28,786 bases of DNA from a virus, in the IMG/VR virus record IMGVR_UViG_3300020578_000332, positions 1 to 28,786 of that record. One strand, given 5' to 3'. Position numbers and translations under genes: made by a program. The notes below the pieces were generated by a model. That model saw only the letters and a program-made list of their open reading frames with translations. It was not told where the DNA came from and did no database searches. Below are positions 3,275 to 12,606 of the stretch, in pieces (position 1 is the first letter of the stretch; every line of letters begins with the position of its first letter).

Positions 3275-3931
3275 ATGATTAAATCAGAATCAATCGTAAA
3301 TCTACTTCCTGCAATTATTTCAGCAAAACAAAAATTCGGCACGATCAATAAAAACAAGTCTGGATACGGCTATACCTACGCTACAATCGACGAGATTTTA
3401 GACAAGATAGAGAAGCCCCTTCTAGAAGCAGGTCTGTTTATTGTACACGATCGAAACATCGAAACGATGGAGTTAACTAGCTATGTGTATCACACAAGCG
3501 GAGAATACATTAGCACTAAGATTAAACTAGACGTAGAGCTAAGTAATAAATTGAACTACATGCAAAACTTGGGTTCAGCTTCTACATATGCTATTCGATA
3601 CAACTTGATCGCTTTGTTTAATTTATGTGCAGAGGAAGACGACGACGGCGCTGCATCTAATAAGCCAAAAATTGAAGCTAAGAAACCTAAGTCTCCACAA
3701 ATTAAAATTAGCGAAGAAGAAAAGCCACAACAACAAATTGAAATTAGCGAAGAAGATAAGCAATTAAAAGATCTGAAACAAAAACTTATACCTTACATTG
3801 TTAAATATAGTCTCAAAGACGAAGTAAATAAACTTTGTGGTCTAAATGTAGAAAACTGGACAGTTGAAAACGTTGAAGCGATTAAAACAATAATTAAACA
3901 AAAGAAGGAAGCAAATGAAACTAATAATTAG
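3275..3931 (+). CDS. erf: ERF-family single-strand annealing protein
   Basis: The product is 218 residues. Residues 1-125 carry the ERF superfamily pattern: SIVNLLPAIISAKQKFG, GYGYTYATIDEILDKI (about 30-45), HTSGEYISTKIKLD (about 73-86) and GSASTYAIRYNLIALF followed by the acidic EEDDDG (about 119-124). ERF proteins form rings that anneal complementary single strands in phage recombination. A charged linker with repeated KISEEE/EISEED follows, then a helical C-terminal domain (DLKQKLIPYIVKY) that could bind SSB or DNA. AAAATGAGGT precedes the start. The next two genes overlap or follow closely, forming an operon with an exonuclease and SSB. Confidence 0.9.
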   Translation: MIKSESIVNLLPAIISAKQKFGTINKNKSGYGYTYATIDEILDKIEKPLLEAGLFIVHDRNIETMELTSYVYHTSGEYISTKIKLDVELSNKLNYMQNLGSASTYAIRYNLIALFNLCAEEDDDGAASNKPKIEAKKPKSPQIKISEEEKPQQQIEISEEDKQLKDLKQKLIPYIVKYSLKDEVNKLCGLNVENWTVENVEAIKTIIKQKKEANETNN

Positions 3932-4064
3932 CACAATAGCACTCCTATTGCTAACAAGTTGTACTACAGCTTGTAAGATAAGTTTAGCGGACTATTGTTT
4001 TACGATAGGAGCAAGTATTGAGATAACACAAGAAGAGGTTTCAAATGAGAGTACTACAGCTTGA
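3915..4064 (+). CDS. Small putative lipoprotein
   Basis: This 49-residue frame begins MKLIISTIALLLLTSC: a positive start, a hydrophobic core and a lipobox (LTSC, Cys16), so the mature peptide would be about 34 residues with a lipid on Cys16. Two more Cys (20, 28) follow. AAGGAAG lies four bases before the ATG. It overlaps the end of the ERF gene by 17 bases and the start of the exonuclease gene by 20. Early phage lipoproteins such as T5 Llp block receptors against superinfection; o-spanins are also small lipoproteins. Which of these applies, if either, cannot be told from sequence. Confidence 0.7.
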   Translation: MKLIISTIALLLLTSCTTACKISLADYCFTIGASIEITQEEVSNESTTA

Positions 4065-4896
4065 ACAAAATAGTTCTGATTGGCTTCAGTTTCGAAGATA
4101 TAAGATTGGGGCGAGTGATGCCCCAATCATCATGGGAGTATCTCCTTATAAATCACCTAAACAACTTCTAAATGAAAAACGAACGGGTGTTTCTTCTACT
4201 GTTATGCATGCAGGAATCCAAGCAGGTAAAGATTTAGAACCTTATGCACTTTCTTTATTGAATGCAGAGAAAGGTTTGAAAATGGAGCCTCTTGTTTGTC
4301 AATCTGATGAATATGAGTACATGATTGCAAGCTATGATGGTTACGACCTGGAGGCAAATGTTGCATGCGAAATCAAAGTTCCAAACTTAGCGGATCATCA
4401 ATTAGCTCTGAGTGGTAAAGTTCCCGAAAAGTATTATGCCCAACTTCAACATCAAATGCTTGTTTCTAATCTTAAAAGCATTATCTATTGCTCTTATCGT
4501 GATCTTGATATTGCAATAGTTATTGTAGAACGTGATGAAAGCTATCTTAAATCGCTCATAGCAAGCGAAAAAGAGTTCTATGAGTGTATGCAAGATGAAG
4601 AAAGTTACGCTCTTGGATACGAAGAAAACACTCTTCTTGACGAACTCTTTGAAAAGCTGCAAACATTCAGAGCAGAGAAAAAAGAGCTTGTTAAAGTTTT
4701 AGAGGACAAAGAAGAGAAGTTAAAAGCTGCAATTCTTGCTTTGGTCGGGGATAAAGAAACTAAGACATATAAAACAACGATCAAAAAAATCTATCGAACA
4801 ACTTACGATTATAAGAAAATGGTCGAAGATTATAAATGCAACATTGAACCCTATAAAAAAGAATCCTTTTTTTGGGATTTTAAAGAAACAAAGTGA
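4045..4896 (+). CDS. YqaJ / lambda-exonuclease-like recombination nuclease
   Basis: The product is 283 residues. The YqaJ domain is clear: DWLQFRRYKIGASDAPIIMG (12-31), the helix GKDLEP (Glu65), SYDGY (Asp98), CEIK (Glu109, Lys111) and YYAQLQHQM (130-138). Asp98, Glu109 and Lys111 fit the PD-(D/E)xK metal-dependent catalytic set. Such 5'-3' exonucleases resect duplex ends so the partner annealing protein can load. A charged coiled-coil region follows residue 205. GAGG precedes the ATG by six bases. With ERF upstream and SSB downstream this forms a two-component recombinase operon. Confidence 0.9.
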   Translation: MRVLQLEQNSSDWLQFRRYKIGASDAPIIMGVSPYKSPKQLLNEKRTGVSSTVMHAGIQAGKDLEPYALSLLNAEKGLKMEPLVCQSDEYEYMIASYDGYDLEANVACEIKVPNLADHQLALSGKVPEKYYAQLQHQMLVSNLKSIIYCSYRDLDIAIVIVERDESYLKSLIASEKEFYECMQDEESYALGYEENTLLDELFEKLQTFRAEKKELVKVLEDKEEKLKAAILALVGDKETKTYKTTIKKIYRTTYDYKKMVEDYKCNIEPYKKESFFWDFKETK

Positions 4897-4904
4897 GATA
4901 AAAA

Positions 4905-5237
4905 ATGTTATCCGTAACTTTAGTCGGCTATGTGTTTCAAGCCGTAGAAACAAGAACACACAATGAAAAAACCTTTCACTCTTTAAAAGTTAAAGTAAGT
5001 CAAAGCAAAAATTCTTATATTTACGTTGATTGTTTTGTAAATGAAGGGATTTTGAAATACGCATCTCTTATAGAAAAAGACTCAACAGTTTTAATATTTG
5101 GAGATCTTTCAATCTCTGCATACACTACTAAACAAGGTGAACCAGCTCCTAAAATTCATTGTCAAGTTAAGAGCATCAAATTGATCTCTAAGCCACAAGT
5201 GAAACAAAAAGAGTTAGATCAAGAGATACCTTGGTAA
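4905..5237 (+). CDS. ssb: Single-stranded DNA-binding protein
   Basis: The product is 110 residues with an OB-fold-like pattern: MLSVTLVGYVFQAVETRT at the start, YIYVDCFVNEG in the middle and SISAYTTKQGEPAPKI, typical of the SSB strand region. It ends DQEIPW, which resembles the acidic tip with a final aromatic residue that recruits partners in bacterial SSBs. It is shorter than cellular SSB (about 170 residues) because the flexible linker is brief. GTGAGATAAAA precedes the ATG, eight bases after the exonuclease stop codon. It would coat single strands produced by the exonuclease. Confidence 0.8.
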   Translation: MLSVTLVGYVFQAVETRTHNEKTFHSLKVKVSQSKNSYIYVDCFVNEGILKYASLIEKDSTVLIFGDLSISAYTTKQGEPAPKIHCQVKSIKLISKPQVKQKELDQEIPW

Positions 5238-6443: not shown

Positions 6444-7331
6444 CTAGATTACAAATTCAGTGATAACAACAACCCCTGCTGCACCTGCACCGCCGTTTGC
6501 TGGAGCTGAAGTAGTACCAGAAGCCCCACCCCCTCCGCCACCGCCAAAATCTGATCCTGCATACCCATTTATAACATTGGTTACAGGGGGAAAAGGAGAA
6601 CCGTTAGCAACAACGCCTGCTGCTCCTCCTCCAAAGTAGGAAGAACCACCAGCCCCTCCTTGTCCGTTATCAAAAACACTACCAGTGTAAGTTGTTCCCC
6701 CTGAACCCCCTCCTTGTCCATTTATATTTACGTCTCCCGTAGAACCAACTCCCCCAGGTCCACCAAGTCCGACACGAGCATTTGCAGCTGCACCGCCTCC
6801 AGTTCCTCCGCTAGCAGAAAGTATGGAGCCGACTGATGATGCATTACCGTTAACTCCAGCCGAAGGAAGAGTAATACTATTACCGATACCGCCAGCTCCA
6901 CCAGTTCCAATCGTTACTGCTTGAGAAACTCCAATTGTAGCAGCCGTGACGGTTTTGCGAGCATAACCCCCACCACCGCCTCCTCCAGCTCCTGCAATAT
7001 CTCCAGTTCCACCCCCACCGCCTCCTCCGCCTACAACCTCAATGATTGCGTATGAAAGTCCAGCTGTTGGGGTATATGTACCCGACGAGGTGAAAACTTG
7101 AGTAACTACAGAGCTAAATCCACCACCAGCCGCCTGAAAGCTTGGTAAAACGCCTGCTCCGTTACTTACCAAGACTTGGCCACTACTGCCTGTTCCAATG
7201 TTTTGAAACGCCCCTGTAGCCGTCGTCCCTGCTGCTAGAACACCGTAAGCGGTCGTCGCTGTACTTAACCCCGTCCCACCGCTAGAAACGTCGATGGGCT
7301 TGGGTGTGTTGATCGAATTGTTTGTTGGCAT
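6444..7331 (-). CDS. Short tail fibre, glycine-rich tip (fibre H)
   Basis: The product is 295 residues. Residues 1-72 are the shared fibre head module (SGGTGLSTATTAYGVLAAGT, GQVLVSNGAGVLPSFQA). Residues 78-295 form a glycine-rich domain: strand SYAIIEVVG, Gly runs, GGYARKTVTAATIG, further Gly-rich loops and a final VVITEFVI. Such domains occur in phage adhesins; in S16 gp38 glycine-rich segments form polyglycine-II helices that bind the receptor. It is closely related to the next gene upstream (7340-8203). It is the last gene of the tail unit. A TAAGGTAGGT sequence precedes the ATG. Confidence 0.75.
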   Translation of the reverse strand: MPTNNSINTPKPIDVSSGGTGLSTATTAYGVLAAGTTATGAFQNIGTGSSGQVLVSNGAGVLPSFQAAGGGFSSVVTQVFTSSGTYTPTAGLSYAIIEVVGGGGGGGGTGDIAGAGGGGGGGYARKTVTAATIGVSQAVTIGTGGAGGIGNSITLPSAGVNGNASSVGSILSASGGTGGGAAANARVGLGGPGGVGSTGDVNINGQGGGSGGTTYTGSVFDNGQGGAGGSSYFGGGAAGVVANGSPFPPVTNVINGYAGSDFGGGGGGGASGTTSAPANGGAGAAGVVVITEFVI

Positions 7332-7339
7332 AACCTACC

Positions 7340-8203
7340 TTAAATTACATATTCAGTGATAACAACGATTCCAGCAGATCCGTCTCCGCCCGAGTCTGTA
7401 CCGATACCGCCATGAGCTGCACCGCCTCCGCCTCCGCCGTAGTTACCTGCAAAGCCTTTACCCCCTGCACCATTCAGACCTTGAACGCCAACGGCACCAC
7501 CTCCAAAATAAGAGGAACCACCAGCCCCACCTGCTGCGCAAACATGGGTGTTTTGGTTTACGGCAGAACTTCCAGCCATTCCACCACCGCCCGATAAGTT
7601 GAAATCTCCCCCCGATCCTACACCCCCAGCACCACCTGAAAAAGATCCAGAAACAGGAGTCGATCCACCTGATCCTCCAGCCCCACCAGTAGCAGAAACT
7701 ATAGTTCCAACGGATGTTGTCCCACCTGTACTTCCTGGATTGTTTCCTGAGGAACCACCAGCACCTAAGGCACCAATCGTTACCGTTTGAGAAGCTCCGA
7801 TAGTCGCTGCTGTAACAGTTTTACGAGCATAACCACCGCCTCCGCCTCCTCCAGCTCCTGAATAAGAAGTACAACCCCCACCACCGCCTCCGCCTCCTAC
7901 GACTTCGATTGTGCAGTAAGAGAGGCCTGTTGTTGGGGTATATGTACCCGAAGCGGTAAAAACTTGGGTAACTATCGATGCGAAACCACCACCGCCACCA
8001 GATGCTTGAAAGCTTGGTAAAACTCCTGCTCCGTTACTGGTCAATACTTGGCCTGCCGCCCCAGTACCTATATTTTGAAATGCAGAGGTGCTACTTGTCC
8101 CAGCTGCTAGAACACCGTAAGCGGTACCTGCATTATTAAGGCCTGTGCCCCCTTTTGCAACTTCGGCGGGGTCTTGGCTAGCCCAAGAATTAATAGTTGG
8201 CAT
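7340..8203 (-). CDS. Short tail fibre, glycine-rich tip (fibre G)
   Basis: The product is 287 residues. The head module (KGGTGLNNAGTAYGVLAAGT, GQVLTSNGAGVLPSFQA) joins a glycine-rich domain with SYCTIEVVG, GGYARKTVTAATIG and a final VVITEYVI. Compared with its downstream paralogue the strands are conserved and the Gly-rich loops differ in length and content, as expected where loops face a variable receptor. The N-terminal tip (MPTINSWASQDPAEVA) differs from MPTNNSINTPKPIDVS in two siblings and is closer to the MPTINS start at 9511. ATAAGGATA precedes the ATG. Confidence 0.75.
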   Translation of the reverse strand: MPTINSWASQDPAEVAKGGTGLNNAGTAYGVLAAGTSSTSAFQNIGTGAAGQVLTSNGAGVLPSFQASGGGGGFASIVTQVFTASGTYTPTTGLSYCTIEVVGGGGGGGGCTSYSGAGGGGGGGYARKTVTAATIGASQTVTIGALGAGGSSGNNPGSTGGTTSVGTIVSATGGAGGSGGSTPVSGSFSGGAGGVGSGGDFNLSGGGGMAGSSAVNQNTHVCAAGGAGGSSYFGGGAVGVQGLNGAGGKGFAGNYGGGGGGAAHGGIGTDSGGDGSAGIVVITEYVI

Positions 8204-8212
8204 AGATTATCC

Positions 8213-8914
8213 TTATTTTTTATACCCGTAAACTGAGGCTCTTCCTGTCGTTATGGTTCCTGGAACACTTAGTTTAAAAGCGTTTGCAAGACCTGTTGCG
8301 TGTTGAAAACCTGCGTAAACTTGAGCAGCGCTTCCTGATGCTGCTGATCTAACTGCGGTATATGTATTTTCTCCAAAAGGCAACAATTCTATATCAAAAT
8401 TTGACATATAATTAGTAAAAAAAAACCCTAGAGTTGCTTCCGTTGCAGTTGTACTGCTGATCCAGTTGAAAGGAGTACTAGAAGCACCATAACTAAACTG
8501 AAAAGAATTTGTGTCATATCCAGACGATAGAAACGTTGCTCCGTTATCGGTTGATATTTGCATAGTCAAAAATTGGCCGCCGCCTGTCGGGCCTGTACCG
8601 TATAATTTACAGGTATAACCCATATAAACGGTATTATCTACAAAGTTATTGAATGTTACAGTGTTTAACCCTGCAAGATCTTGAGAGCTTAACAGAACTA
8701 ATGCACCGCTTGAAGCTGCTTGAAAGCTTGGTAAACTGGTTCCGTTTGAGGTCAAAACTTGGCCTACCGACCCAGTACCAATATTTTGAATAGCCCCTGT
8801 AGCGGTCGTCCCTGCTGCAAGGATACCGTTAGCCGTTGTCAACGTTGATTGACCCGTCCCACCGCTAGAAACGTCAATGGGTTTGGGGGTGTTTATCGAA
8901 TTGTTTGTTGGCAT
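8213..8914 (-). CDS. Short tail fibre with beta-rich tip (fibre F)
   Basis: The product is 233 residues. Residues 1-70 are the head module, nearly identical to that of the gene at 7331 (same first 16 residues), but the rest is an unrelated beta-rich domain (MQISTDNGATFLSSGYDTN, ending TGRASVYGYKK) of a type common at fibre ends, with the final strand turning into YGxKK. This is direct evidence of tip swapping behind a conserved head. AAGGGTAAATT lies before the next gene and ATTTATGCC-type starts recur along the array. Confidence 0.7.
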   Translation of the reverse strand: MPTNNSINTPKPIDVSSGGTGQSTLTTANGILAAGTTATGAIQNIGTGSVGQVLTSNGTSLPSFQAASSGALVLLSSQDLAGLNTVTFNNFVDNTVYMGYTCKLYGTGPTGGGQFLTMQISTDNGATFLSSGYDTNSFQFSYGASSTPFNWISSTTATEATLGFFFTNYMSNFDIELLPFGENTYTAVRSAASGSAAQVYAGFQHATGLANAFKLSVPGTITTGRASVYGYKK

Positions 8915-8923
8915 AATTTACCC

Positions 8924-9511
8924 TTAAACTACGGTTATGTTCCCTTGCGAGCTAAATACCTCAAAAAGTGTATCCGCTGTGATACATTTAAATTTTATGC
9001 AATCACCAGCCGCTGAGGAAGCTAGAGATCCCCCTGTTCCTGCGGTCGTTGTGGATGTACCAAAACGAATTGTCTGACCTGCATTTTGTGCGACTAGCCA
9101 ACCGCCTGCTCCCTTGTATAGCACGCTCATTTCTGTACCAAGGGCTGCTGTAGCTGGTAAAGTCAAGGTCACTAGAGCTGCGTTATTTGCGATATAATCG
9201 GTATTTACAGCCATCGCTTGGGTAGTGCCCGTAACTTCTACTGTTGAAACTCCTCCAGTAGCTGCGATTGTGATCGAGTTGGCTGCGTTCGTTACGCTGA
9301 TCCCTGATCCTGCTGTAATCGTTGCTGCAAGTGGTGCGCCTGCCGTATTTCCAACAACAATTTGACCGTCTGTAAGCGTCAATGCTGTTAAAGCTGAAGT
9401 ACCCGTAGCCCCTGAAATCACCGCTCCATTGATGTTAAAAGAGGAGCTTGCGGAACCGCCTTTTGCAATTTCAATCGGGATATTACTTCCGATACTGTTG
9501 ATTGTAGGCAT
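8924..9511 (-). CDS. Short tail fibre with GNITVV tip (fibre E)
   Basis: The product is 195 residues. It starts MPTINSIGSNIPIEIAKGGS, a variant head, then GQIVVGNTAGAPLAATITAG and SITIAATGG as a beta-repeat stalk. The last 80 residues (AGQTIRFGTSTTTAGTGGSL, ending SSQGNITVV) match the tip of the next gene upstream (9522-10061). So this gene combines the head start of one set with the tip of another. TAGGAGATAATTT precedes the ATG. Confidence 0.7.
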   Translation of the reverse strand: MPTINSIGSNIPIEIAKGGSASSSFNINGAVISGATGTSALTALTLTDGQIVVGNTAGAPLAATITAGSGISVTNAANSITIAATGGVSTVEVTGTTQAMAVNTDYIANNAALVTLTLPATAALGTEMSVLYKGAGGWLVAQNAGQTIRFGTSTTTAGTGGSLASSAAGDCIKFKCITADTLFEVFSSQGNITVV

Positions 9512-9521
9512 AAATTATCTC

Positions 9522-10061
9522 CTAAACGACGGTGATGTTTCCGATAACAGAAACCACGTTAAAACTATTGTTTGCTACTGAGCAGACGATCTCCAATGAG
9601 TCCCCCGCTGCGGTTGTTGCTAAAGATCCCCCAGCCCCTGCGGTCGTTGCAGCGCTAGAAATTCTAATTTGTTGCCCTGCCCCTTGGGTGATAGTCACTT
9701 GGTTTGCAGCACTCAGATTATAGATTTTAAAATGATCCCCTAAAGCTGCCGTTGCTGGAAGTGATAGAGAAATAGCTCCGCCTGAGGTATCAACAAAATA
9801 GCCCTCTCCGTTTACTAGTGCTTGGTTTGCATTAATCACTTTCCAGGTGGAACCACCACCAACAGATGAAATCGTGATCGAGTTCTGTCCATTTGTGATG
9901 CTGACCCCTGCCCCTGCGGTCAAAGTACCTACAGCCATGTTTGGAGCAGCTACACCGCCGATAATAATTTGGCCGTTTGCGTTAAAATCACCCGTACTAG
10001 ACAAAGCACCACTTAATTTCATGTTTGCGCAATTTAAAACTGCATTTACAAAACCAGCCAT
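9522..10061 (-). CDS. Short tail fibre with GNITVV tip (fibre D)
   Basis: The product is 179 residues. The start (MAGFVNAVLNCANMKLSGAL) is unique in the array, the middle (GVSITNGQNSITISSVGGG) resembles the stalk of the gene at 8924-9511, and the tip (GAGQQIRISSAATTAGAGG, ending IGNITVV) is the same module. GGAAGGTAAC precedes the ATG by six bases and the gene starts within a base of the upstream stop codon. Confidence 0.7.
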   Translation of the reverse strand: MAGFVNAVLNCANMKLSGALSSTGDFNANGQIIIGGVAAPNMAVGTLTAGAGVSITNGQNSITISSVGGGSTWKVINANQALVNGEGYFVDTSGGAISLSLPATAALGDHFKIYNLSAANQVTITQGAGQQIRISSAATTAGAGGSLATTAAGDSLEIVCSVANNSFNVVSVIGNITVV

Positions 10062-10062
10062 A

Positions 10063-10755
10063 TTAAGTTACCTTCCTGCTAAATCCGTTTGTTTTCCAGT
10101 TTATAGTAGTACCCGCTAAGCCAGTCACTTGTACTAAGGCATTATTACCAGAGGCTATAATTGTTGCAGAAATTGCAAAAGCTCCGTCAATGACGCTAAG
10201 AGAGGTATTAACACCTATAAGAGTTCCAGCAGCTCCAGTAGTCCTTACAGCACCAAAAAGGTTCAAGGAAGCCCCTTTTGGGCCTGAGGCATTGAAACAG
10301 AATACGTCTACGTCAATTGCTACAGTTCCAGCCACTGCACCTAAGGGAATTGTTGCAATAGTTGTAGGAGTAGCATCTGTTGTGGTTACGGTAGCATCAA
10401 ATTGCTGAGGGTTTGAAATTGTAAGTGTATTTCCTGCGCCTGCGACCGTTAAGTCTCCAGAACCTAGAATATTAATATTTCCAGCTACAGGATTGATAAC
10501 TCCGCCAGTGTTACCCGTCAAAGTGTTTAGATCGGATGCAGAGCCTCCCAAAAGTACCCAAACACCTAAATTGTTAACGATACCACCGCTTGCATAAAGT
10601 GCTGGTGTTGCTGGGGGGTTCTGTAAAACAAAAAACGTTCCTACTGGTCTTTTTAATGCCCCTGTTGGTGCTGTTGTACCAGTAATGATGTTAAAATTGT
10701 TTTCTAAAAAACCACCTTGTTTTGAGACAACCATAGGTTGGTTATAAACTGTCAT
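10063..10755 (-). CDS. Tail fibre-type protein (fibre C)
   Basis: The product is 230 residues. The first 75 (GGFLENNFNIITGTTAPTGA, then YASGGIVNNLGVWVLLGG) match the first 75 of the protein at 11233-11937. The middle has the widespread fibre repeat LTGNTGGVINPVAGNINILG, and the C-terminus (TTDATPTTIATIPLG, FNASGPKGASLNLFGAVRTT) is a beta domain I know from many fibre proteins, ending WKTNGFSRKVT. AGAGGATAAA precedes the ATG. Confidence 0.7.
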   Translation of the reverse strand: MTVYNQPMVVSKQGGFLENNFNIITGTTAPTGALKRPVGTFFVLQNPPATPALYASGGIVNNLGVWVLLGGSASDLNTLTGNTGGVINPVAGNINILGSGDLTVAGAGNTLTISNPQQFDATVTTTDATPTTIATIPLGAVAGTVAIDVDVFCFNASGPKGASLNLFGAVRTTGAAGTLIGVNTSLSVIDGAFAISATIIASGNNALVQVTGLAGTTINWKTNGFSRKVT

Positions 10756-10805
10756 TTTATCCTCTTTTTAGAACCAATCTAAATAATAAAGATTTTACTA
10801 GCTAC

Positions 10806-11093
10806 TTAACTGAACGTATATGTTCCTCTATCCGTCCAACTAAATTTATATGCTGAAGAAGCTGAACCATTTAATTGTGGCCATTTAGCTTCTGTTCTAT
10901 TGGTACCTGAATAAGTGTACTCTACAATTTGCCATTTGGGTTCACTTTCTTCTGTACCAGGTTTAGCAAACCCTGCATAAATCAAATTGTTACTTCCATC
11001 ATATTCGCCACGGAATGCTTGGTTACCAAATGAATTTGGGTCCCAACGATAGTTAGCGTCTAACTGTCCGAGTGGTCTATTATTGTCTGACAT
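10806..11093 (-). CDS. Small conserved-type virion-associated protein
   Basis: The product is 95 residues: ANYRWDPNSFGNQAFRGEYD, then NNLIYAGFAKPGTEESEPKW, then a Tyr/Trp-rich end SWTDRGTYTFS. Small proteins with this AYRWDP / NLIYAGFA pattern occur among fibre genes of many phages, in my recollection; their role is not known to me. AAAGGTGAAAA precedes the ATG, which lies inside the end of the preceding small gene (11060-11233). Confidence 0.65.
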   Translation of the reverse strand: MSDNNRPLGQLDANYRWDPNSFGNQAFRGEYDGSNNLIYAGFAKPGTEESEPKWQIVEYTYSGTNRTEAKWPQLNGSASSAYKFSWTDRGTYTFS

Positions 11094-11233
11094 TTTTCAC
11101 CTTTAAACTTTAAAAGGATTAATTTTTGGATTAAGGCGAATGCGTCAAAGGCATCTACTAAAGAGACACCTTCAGGAATTTCAATACAGTATTCACCCGA
11201 GTAGTGTTCACAATTCAGTTTGATTTTATCCAT
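11060..11233 (-). CDS. Small overlapped protein in the fibre cluster
   Basis: This 57-residue frame starts at an ATG (11233) that shares a base with the TGA of the upstream fibre gene (TGATG) and ends 34 bases inside the next gene. The sequence starts MDKIKLNCEHYSGEYCIEIP and continues with a helix (DAFDAFALIQKLILL) and a basic end. It fills what would otherwise be a 139-base gap in a tightly packed operon. No family is recognised. Confidence 0.6.
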   Translation of the reverse strand: MDKIKLNCEHYSGEYCIEIPEGVSLVDAFDAFALIQKLILLKFKGEKCQTIIDHSDS

Positions 11234-11937
11234 CAAATTGATCTCACGATAAAATAATCAACTCTAGAAACATCATTTGTTTCCGTCGTTGCATCTGCTG
11301 GTTTTCTTGATGTAATAACAAAGTTTGTGTTTGGTGTAATTACAAAAGTCAATAAACCCAAAGCTGTCGATGCGTTAATATTTGAGACAGAAAGTAAAAT
11401 TCTATCATCAGCAGTTATGTTTGTATTTGCAACAGTAACGGTTCCAGCAACTAATGTCGCTTGCCCAATAAAATCCGTTGCAGCACCACCTTTCACCCTT
11501 AAACATTTCCCTGTACCAGAGACAGATATATTACCATTCGTTGCGCTAAAGTCTGTTCCAGAGGTTAAAGTTGTTGTGGTTGCCAGAGAGCCTGGAGCTG
11601 TGATTGCAGCTGGTAGAGATAGAGTTACGGTAGAACCTGCATTTGCTACAGCGACTTGGCTACCTGTTCCTGAAATAGTAATGTTGCCCGATGAAGGAGT
11701 TAAGGAATTAATTGTAAGTACATCTCCACCACTTGCTCCCAAAACAATCCATACTGCTAAGTTATTTACAACTCCGCCTGAGGAATACATGGTTTGTGAT
11801 ACTTCATCTAAATAAAATGCACCTGGTGCCCTTTTTAACGATGTTGACGGCGCACCATTACCGACTATGATTGAGAAAGAATTTTCTGAAAATCCGCCTA
11901 ATTTTGTTACATAGGGGATATTGACGTTTACTGCCAT
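11233..11937 (-). CDS. Tail fibre-type protein (fibre A)
   Basis: The product is 234 residues. The N-terminus (GGFSENSFSIIVGNGAPSTS, YSSGGVVNNLAVWIVLGASG) is the same head module as at 10063-10755, followed by the beta stalk SGNITISGTGSQVAVANAGS. The C-terminal domain (GTDFSATNGNISVSGTGKCL, VITPNTNFVITSRKPADATT) resembles fibre tips built of short beta repeats. I use the ATG at 11937 because AAAAAGGTTTCTT precedes it; a longer frame to 11967 would run through a hairpin. Confidence 0.7.
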   Translation of the reverse strand: MAVNVNIPYVTKLGGFSENSFSIIVGNGAPSTSLKRAPGAFYLDEVSQTMYSSGGVVNNLAVWIVLGASGGDVLTINSLTPSSGNITISGTGSQVAVANAGSTVTLSLPAAITAPGSLATTTTLTSGTDFSATNGNISVSGTGKCLRVKGGAATDFIGQATLVAGTVTVANTNITADDRILLSVSNINASTALGLLTFVITPNTNFVITSRKPADATTETNDVSRVDYFIVRSI

Positions 11938-11994: not shown

Positions 11995-12606
11995 TTAACT
12001 TATTTTTTGATAAGGAAAACCTAAGTTTTTGATGTGTTGGTTCAATGCTGCTCCTAGACTTGGTTTTTTACCCTGCCACCATGAACCATATCGATTAGAT
12101 CCCGTAGTTTTTGCCCTAGATGCCCCATCCATAAATAACCTAGCGATGTTGCTAGGTACGTTGTCATATTTATACACTCCATCGCCTTGAAACTTAACAA
12201 ACAATCTTTTGTTTCTTGGGCTGTATTTGAAACCGTACACAGTTGAGCTTTGGAGCCTTGATTGTGGTATACCTGACTCTTCACCCTTTGAGATCTGGAT
12301 ACTGCCTTGTAGCTTATTTAAAGTATTGTCCAGGGTTGTTTTGTTAGCAGCTATGCGATTGATGTTTGCATCGGGTACTTGTTTTGCATATTTTGCAAAA
12401 GCCTTGGGGTCTCCTCCTGCTAATAAATAGAGAAATTCAGCACCTTTAGGGATTTGATCTTCTTCCGAAACCATTTCTTCTGAAAACTTTTGACGTGCAA
12501 GGTTTATAACTTGTTGTACTACTTTCAAATCATCTTCAGATAAATCTTCGATGTTATTTTGTAGTTGATTTACAAATTCAGAAAATAATGTTTTGAATTC
12601 TTCCAT
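11995..12606 (-). CDS. KTSC-domain virion-associated protein
   Basis: The product is 203 residues. The N-terminal half is helical and acidic (DLSEDDLKVVQQVINLARQK). The C-terminal part carries a KTSC-type domain: SSTVYGFKYSPRNKRLFVKF, then GVYKYDNVPSNIARLFMDGA, then SRAKTTGSNRYGSWWQ. KTSC domains are named from a lysyl-tRNA synthetase C-terminus and are frequent in phage proteins, with no established role here. The ATG overlaps the TAA of the upstream gene (TAATG). Confidence 0.7.
   Translation of the reverse strand: MEEFKTLFSEFVNQLQNNIEDLSEDDLKVVQQVINLARQKFSEEMVSEEDQIPKGAEFLYLLAGGDPKAFAKYAKQVPDANINRIAANKTTLDNTLNKLQGSIQISKGEESGIPQSRLQSSTVYGFKYSPRNKRLFVKFQGDGVYKYDNVPSNIARLFMDGASRAKTTGSNRYGSWWQGKKPSLGAALNQHIKNLGFPYQKIS

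What the first reader, a model, noticed from the sequence alone, without database searches (positions are those of the whole stretch)
6444..11937. Eight-gene modular fibre array with exchanged heads, stalks and tips
Seven fibre-like proteins in a row combine a few modules: head I (SGGTGL/KGGTGL...YGVLAAGT...PSFQA) in three, head II (GGFxENxFxII...GVVNNLxVW) in two, tip GNITVV in two, glycine-rich tip VVITExVI in two, others unique. DNA identity is high at module edges, for example GCTTGAAAGCTTGGTAAA near 7137, 8010 and 8718, consistent with recent duplication and recombination. Two small proteins are embedded. Such a set of short fibres rather than one long one could give a virion several receptor specificities at once.
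Basis: partly seen in the sequence, partly recalled or inferred. Interest (0 to 1): 0.65.

Follow-up and report, generated by a model that had tools for sequence, protein, structure and literature searches.

The report
Swappable set of short phage fibres
An uncultivated tailed phage carries seven short fibre-like genes in one 5.5-kb stretch, built from a few exchangeable parts that it shares with otherwise distant phages, so it can probably change what its particles stick to piece by piece; at least two of the seven end in a part known from phage tail connectors rather than in an obvious receptor-binding tip.

Summary
Window 6444-11937 (minus strand) encodes seven fibre-like proteins of 179-295 aa and two small ORFs (57 and 95 aa): nine genes, not eight. 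The shared modules are real (BLASTP E 1e-17 to 1e-49), and a fourth protein (F4) starts with the first ~19 residues of head I. In related phages the same heads carry other tips and the same tips other heads, with identity collapsing at the head/tip junction. A relative whose structural genes are only 31-41% identical has F4 and F5 at 90% and 86%, while relatives with a much closer backbone (mostly 65-97%) have different arrays: modules move between lineages. Recent copying applies only to head I; the GNITVV and head-II pairs are saturated at synonymous sites. Receptor diversity is only partly supported: the GNITVV "tip" is confidently predicted to be the XD1 domain of T4 gp9/gp10 and CBA120 TSP4, a spacer there but glycan-binding in CpaA and StcE. 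Most likely this is a tail adhesin apparatus of short, probably trimeric, separately encoded subunits reshuffled by recombination, with connector-like members (F6, F5, F4) and variable tips (F1-F3, F8). Assembly, virion presence, host and receptors are untested.

The parts
11233..11937 (-). F8, 234 aa: head II + stalk + K1-lyase_C C-terminal domain
   Evidence: BLASTP to F6; Pfam PF24146 43.8 bits, cut-off 27; ortholog 83% in L030; the same tip domain occurs without head II, in a 124-aa protein, in L063
11060..11233 (-). small ORF, 57 aa, start overlaps the F8 stop (TGATG)
   Evidence: translation; 57-aa ortholog in L030 at the same place, 78% identical
10806..11093 (-). F7, 95 aa small protein, no known family
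   Evidence: 56-57% identical orthologs in L029, L030, L049; no PDB or PHROG match
10063..10755 (-). F6, 230 aa: head II + stalk + jelly-roll-like C-terminal domain
   Evidence: residues 75-230 are 90% identical in L035 and L039 with a different N-terminus; low-confidence model resembles T4 gp9 C-terminal domain and TNF/C1q-like domains
9522..10061 (-). F5, 179 aa: short N-terminus + stalk + XD1-like (GNITVV) domain
   Evidence: 44% to F4; 86% to a protein in a phage with a 31-41% identical backbone
8924..9511 (-). F4, 195 aa: first ~19 aa of head I + stalk + XD1-like (GNITVV) domain
   Evidence: AlphaFold2 residues 88-195 pLDDT about 90 or more; VIA-align Z 12.2 to CBA120 TSP4 XD1, 10.1 to T4 gp9
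8213..8914 (-). F3, 233 aa: head I + beta-rich tip of unknown family
   Evidence: head 83% to F1; same head with a C1q-like tip in L043, L049, L035
7340..8203 (-). F2, 287 aa: head I + Gly_rich_2 tip
   Evidence: Pfam PF21722 E 4e-11; head 92% identical in L043 followed by an unrelated tip
6444..7331 (-). F1, 295 aa: mosaic head I (F3-like start, F2-like end) + Gly_rich_2 tip
   Evidence: Pfam PF21722 E 3e-13; maximum chi-square permutation p = 0.0013
7132..7149 (-). module-edge sequence (LPSFQA) in F1, one mismatch to the 18-mer
   Evidence: read directly
8004..8021 (-). module-edge 18-mer in F2
   Evidence: exact match
8718..8735 (-). module-edge 18-mer in F3
   Evidence: exact match
11995..12606 (-). 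KTSC-domain protein just upstream; conserved left border of the array
   Evidence: Pfam PF13619; 71-80% identical in relatives
3275..3931 (+). Erf (Rad52-like) recombinase, proposed agent of module exchange
   Evidence: Pfam ERF E 2.5e-17
4045..4896 (+). YqaJ-type exonuclease, likely partner of Erf
   Evidence: Pfam YqaJ E 4e-18
4905..5237 (+). probable single-strand DNA-binding protein
   Evidence: sequence resemblance by eye only; not tested against a family

Best explanation
The array encodes the adhesin apparatus of a short-tailed phage, made of several short, probably trimeric, separately encoded subunits instead of one long fibre. Each protein is an N-terminal docking module (head I, head II or a short N-terminus), a repeat-like stalk and one C-terminal domain. 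F6, F5 and F4 end in domains resembling parts of tail connectors (F4/F5 the XD1 domain of T4 gp9/gp10 and CBA120 TSP4; F6 possibly the gp9 C-terminal or TNF-like jelly roll) and probably form a conserved connecting part. F1, F2, F3 and F8 carry the variable, probably receptor-binding, tips. F1-F3 share head I, so they probably compete for the same socket, which would make virions carry mixtures of tips. Arrays change by recombination at the conserved heads between co-infecting phages, plausibly helped by the phage's Erf/YqaJ recombination pair. Shown: the modules, the breakpoints, transfer between distant backbones, the XD1 fold prediction. Inferred: trimer formation, virion assembly, shared socket, receptor binding, and the recombinase as the agent.
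For: Modules and homology within the window. Junction breakpoints: F2 vs L043 is 90-95% aa over residues 1-60, then 35% or less; F6 vs L035 is 22-40% over residues 1-71, then 75-100%. Opposed backbone/fibre contrast: L043 backbone 31-41% but F5 86%, F4 90%, heads 92%; G008/G002 backbone mostly 65-97% but arrays mostly 29-83% with genes gained or lost. Mosaic head of F1 (p 0.0013). XD1 fold. F6-F5 adjacency in every record where F6 was found: window, L043, L035, L039, L045. Erf and YqaJ; an Erf/Exo pair recombines 78% identical DNA about as well as lambda Red (PMC3945230).
Against: No proteomics, no host, no trimer model. XD1 is also a C-terminal domain of a Pa223 capsid spike and of a tailspike and glycan-binding in CpaA and StcE (PMC8825819), so F4/F5 could bind receptors after all. 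The F6 model has mean pLDDT 58. A role in the tail rests mainly on gene order and on PHROG tail-fibre matches to the Gly-rich domain and the stalk. Longest exact stretches shared inside the array are 23 bp.
Confidence: 0.55

Rival explanations
1. Every one of the seven is an independent receptor-binding fibre with its own tip, giving the virion several specificities at once.
For: Distinct C-terminal domains including Gly_rich_2 and K1-lyase_C, C1q in relatives; XD1 is glycan-binding in CpaA and StcE (PMC8825819); phages with several tailspikes exist.
Against: F4 and F5 share a domain typical of connectors; F1 and F2 share one tip type, so at most five kinds of tip; three proteins share one head.
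Confidence: 0.25
2. The proteins are consecutive segments of one composite fibre, stacked end to end, as T4 gp34-37 or gp37 with a Gly-rich adhesin cap.
For: Small co-directional genes in a conserved order across phages; Gly-rich adhesin caps are known in T-even phages (own knowledge); connector-type domains.
Against: Three proteins with the same head I and two with the same Gly-rich tip would occupy the same position; heads and tips exchange freely.
Confidence: 0.15
3. The array encodes head (capsid) fibres or decoration proteins rather than tail adhesins.
For: The Pa223 capsid spike carries the same XD1-type C-terminal domain; C1q-like and Gly-rich domains are not specific to tails.
Against: The array follows the tail and internal-virion gene block and is far from the capsid genes; PHROG matches are to tail fibre families.
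Confidence: 0.05

Closest known systems
Ackermannviridae branched tailspike complex (CBA120 TSP1-4) and the gp66/gp63.1 complex of podovirus G7C
   Same: Several receptor-binding proteins in one gene cluster, exchangeable receptor modules, and an XD1-type domain in the connector protein TSP4.
   Different: Those are large tailspikes (TSP4 over 1,000 aa) with XD2/XD3 docking jelly rolls; here the proteins are 179-295 aa, no enzyme domain was found, and XD1 is the last domain.
Phage T4 gp9 (long tail fibre connector)
   Same: F4/F5 tip matches the gp9 middle domain (Z 10.1) and the F6 tip, at low confidence, its C-terminal domain (Z 9.1).
   Different: In gp9 both domains are in one 288-aa chain; here they are in separate genes with phage-fibre heads.
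Bdellovibrio mosaic adhesive trimer (MAT) proteins (PMC10769870)
   Same: A repertoire of fibres with a constant N-terminus and swapped tips, including TNF-like tips.
   Different: Cellular proteins of about 1,000 aa with signal peptides and another N-terminal domain; no homology tested here.
Domain mosaicism of phage receptor-binding proteins (Smug et al. 2023, PMC10684548)
   Same: Ongoing shuffling of domains between phages, pronounced in receptor-binding proteins.
   Different: A general survey; this is one compact multi-gene array in which both heads and tips are seen to move.
Pfam PF21722 Gly_rich_2 and PF24146 K1-lyase_C
   Same: F1/F2 tips and the F8 tip score above the curated cut-offs.
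   Different: Known domains attached here to heads not found in cultured phage records.

Membership tests
Gly_rich_2 (PF21722) tips | score above the Pfam gathering cut-off | tested here: met
   F1 51 bits and F2 43.7 bits, cut-off 24.3
K1-lyase_C (PF24146) tip | score above the Pfam gathering cut-off | tested here: met
   F8 43.8 bits, cut-off 27
XD1 / T4 gp9 middle-domain fold | beta sandwich superposing on gp9 66-167 and TSP4 XD1 | tested here: met
   predicted model, Z 12.2 (TSP4, 100 residues, rmsd 2.4) and 10.1 (gp9, 91 residues, rmsd 2.6); sequence profile alone only E 0.13 to TSP4
XD1 / T4 gp9 middle-domain fold | spacer or connector role in a tail complex | not testable with these tools
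   needs a structure of the virion or binding assays
Branched multi-tailspike complex (TSP4/gp66 type) | XD2/XD3 jelly-roll docking domains | tested here: inconclusive
   none recognised in the families searched; only two of the seven proteins were modelled
Branched multi-tailspike complex (TSP4/gp66 type) | several separate fibre or spike proteins encoded together | tested here: met
   seven fibre-like ORFs in 5.5 kb; receptor binding itself not tested
Phage fibre genes with domain mosaicism | same head with unrelated tips and same tip with unrelated heads across phages | tested here: met
   F2/L043, F3/L043, F6/L035, F1/L049
Trimeric phage fibres | homotrimer | not testable with these tools
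   only monomer prediction available

The most novel reading that the evidence does not exclude
The array is a construction kit for a heterogeneous tail: interchangeable short fibres (head I) compete for one socket on a connector made of separately encoded gp9-like domains, so each virion carries a random mixture of tips. Modules of this kind were also the source of the chlamydial plasmid protein Pgp3, whose N-terminal domain resembles the stalk of these fibres and whose C-terminal domain resembles their jelly-roll tips.
Probability: 0.15. Interest if true: 0.7.

Novelty: new variant of a known kind. Interest (0 to 1): 0.42.

Why it matters
Well-studied multi-receptor phages carry a few very large tailspikes. 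Here the same evolutionary logic appears with many short, single-tip proteins whose heads and tips are exchanged at a fixed junction between phages with distant backbones. If confirmed on virions it gives a compact natural system for studying how phages change attachment specificity one small module at a time, and how connector domains and receptor tips are told apart.

Tried and rejected
Structure of F6: mean pLDDT 58, so its gp9/TNF-like match is only a lead. PDB sequence searches with head I, head II, F7 and the F3 tip gave nothing significant; the F8 and F1 hits were chance. INPHARED tblastn with F1, F6, F8 and the head of F3: no match; F4 found only a Microcoleus phage at 46% over 32%. 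BLAST's low-complexity filter may hide glycine-rich matches. A diversity-generating retroelement was considered only from the gene list: no reverse transcriptase was noticed among the ORFs, and the variation is whole-domain replacement. Profile matches of A4 to hepatitis C NS3 are noise of the same strength as the Pgp3 match in that search. No tRNA or Rfam family in the window. Host search by capsid protein gave only MAG contigs of mixed taxa; the one read further showed phage-type genes but no clear host gene: host not assigned.

Full report
WHAT THE WINDOW IS. The window is a whole IMG/VR virus record of 28,786 bases, probably a fragment. The minus strand carries portal (28785-27691), scaffold-like, major capsid (23419-22472), tail and internal virion genes (PHROG matches), then a KTSC-domain protein (12606-11995), then the array in question (11937-6444). 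The plus strand carries Erf recombinase, YqaJ exonuclease and a probable SSB. Its capsid protein has only distant relatives (25% identity or less) among 50,697 phage records.

THE OBSERVATION. All listed modules were found. Naming the genes F8 to F1 in the order of transcription: F8 and F6 share head II (43% over 113 aa, E 1e-22); F5 and F4 share the stalk and the GNITVV domain (44% over 151 aa, E 5e-32); F3, F2 and F1 share head I (59-83% over 71 aa); F2 and F1 also share the Gly-rich tip (59% over the full length, E 6e-49). Corrections: there are nine ORFs, since 57-aa and 95-aa ORFs lie between F8 and F6; and F4 starts with the first ~19 residues of head I, so four proteins share that start.

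AGE OF THE COPIES. Among codons that encode the same residue, the number of identical codons was compared with the number expected from the phage's codon usage. Head I shows excess identity (F1-F3 residues 1-20: 16 vs 8.1; F2-F3 residues 46-68: 15 vs 6.3). F4-F5 (25 vs 24.1) and the F6-F8 heads (13 vs 13.0) show none. So only head I (and to a lesser degree the Gly-rich tip shared by F1 and F2) has been copied or exchanged recently inside this genome. Head I of F1 is itself a mosaic: at sites where F2 and F3 differ, 23 of the first 24 follow F3 and the last seven follow F2 (maximum chi-square, permutation p = 0.0013).

EXCHANGE BETWEEN PHAGES. Relatives were found by capsid, F5, F6, KTSC and head I searches of viral contigs. 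Window-by-window comparison shows sharp junctions: F2 against L043 is 90-95% identical over residues 1-60, then unrelated; F3 against L043 is 90-100% over 1-60, then a C1q-like tip (Pfam C1q above cut-off); F6 against L035 is 22-40% over 1-71 and 75-100% after it, ending in a 52-bp exact match; F1 against L049 lacks most of head I but keeps the Gly-rich tip. In L049 a head-II protein continues into the F4 stalk and an XD1 tip. The F8 tip occurs in L063 in a 124-aa protein without head II.

BACKBONE AGAINST ARRAY. One search gives the contrast. The record holding L043 has structural genes 31-41% identical to the window but F5 86%, F4 90% and heads of F2 and F3 92%. Conversely, G008, G002 and G001 have most structural genes at 65-97%, but where their arrays are held (G008, G002) array proteins are mostly 29-83% identical, and F8 is present in G008 and G010 but missing from G002, G004, G007 and L049. 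Descent with the backbone cannot give both patterns; transfer of array pieces between lineages does.

CONSERVED AND VARIABLE MEMBERS. F6 is followed directly by F5 in every record where F6 was found (window, L043, L035, L039, L045), whatever the head of F6 and the backbone. XD1-type proteins come before the head I genes in these arrays. Head I genes occur in tandem with different tips in the window, L043, L049, L035 and L061.

FOLD OF THE GNITVV DOMAIN. AlphaFold2 on 16 aligned relatives gave pLDDT of about 90 or more for F4 residues 88-195. VIA-align against PDB chains found by Foldseek: Klebsiella phage KP1 baseplate chain Z 12.5, CBA120 TSP4 XD1 Z 12.2, Pa223 capsid spike C-terminus 11.1, Solidus gp83 C-terminus 10.7, T4 gp9 residues 66-167 10.1, T4 baseplate (5iv5) 9.9, CpaA 9.0, StcE 6.5. 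These include all four relatives reported for XD1 itself (PMC8825819), where XD1 is described as an apparent spacer in gp9, gp10 and TSP4 and as the fold of glycan-binding domains in CpaA and StcE. So the domain cannot simply be called a receptor tip. The F6 C-terminal domain, in a low-confidence model, is closest to the gp9 C-terminal domain (Z 9.1) and to TNF/C1q-like domains (Z 5-6). The best predicted structures related to F4 in BFVD are unnamed proteins of uncultured phages.

MECHANISM. The best reading is a tail adhesin apparatus of short subunits, with a conserved connector-like part (F6, F5, F4) and variable tips (F1-F3, F8). Because F1-F3 share one head they probably dock on the same partner, which would give mixed tips on one virion; this is inference. 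The Erf/YqaJ pair offers a plausible agent for exchange: an Erf/Exo pair from phage D3 recombined 78% identical DNA about as well as lambda Red (PMC3945230). Exact stretches shared inside the array are 23 bp at most, so exchange would have to tolerate mismatches. Whether Erf acts here is untested.

NOVELTY. Multi-receptor phages with exchangeable receptor modules are known (Ackermannviridae TSP1-4, G7C; PMC8825819), domain mosaicism in receptor-binding proteins is a known general pattern (PMC10684548), and Bdellovibrio uses a comparable repertoire of chimeric fibres (PMC10769870). What differs is the format: seven very short, single-tip proteins, heads not found in cultured phage records, and a connector-type fold used as a terminal module. 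I rate it a new variant of a known kind.

Noticed in passing
window 9263-9379 (-), and the records of L043, L045, L062, L063: The fibre stalk before the XD1 domain resembles the N-terminal domain of chlamydial plasmid protein Pgp3 (Pfam PF20858): 12 sub-cut-off matches in 5 of 12 phage records, best per-genome E 2e-6, none in 14 control genomes. The F6 tip model also resembles the Pgp3 C-terminal domain (Z 6.1, low-confidence model).
   Followed up: partly
L064, L070: Capsid relatives (64% and 44%) lie in contigs binned as Simkaniaceae and Chlamydiia. The Simkaniaceae contig looks like a phage genome, so this may be a host hint or mis-binning; other hits were binned as Lokiarchaeota, Nitrospiraceae and others.
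   Followed up: partly
L043 8739-8945, L035 3038-3244, L039 6236-6442: A 68-aa gene encodes a head-II-like module alone, as a separate protein, just before the array.
   Followed up: no
L063 5795-6346: The F7-like small protein contains an inserted repeat module similar by eye to one in other structural proteins of these phages.
   Followed up: no
L045 9575-15160: A distant relative has several XD1-type proteins in one array, some with long or duplicated stalks.
   Followed up: no
L064, L075, L076 (Simkaniaceae-binned contig): Structural genes at the start of the contig and capsid genes at its end suggest a circularly permuted phage genome.
   Followed up: no
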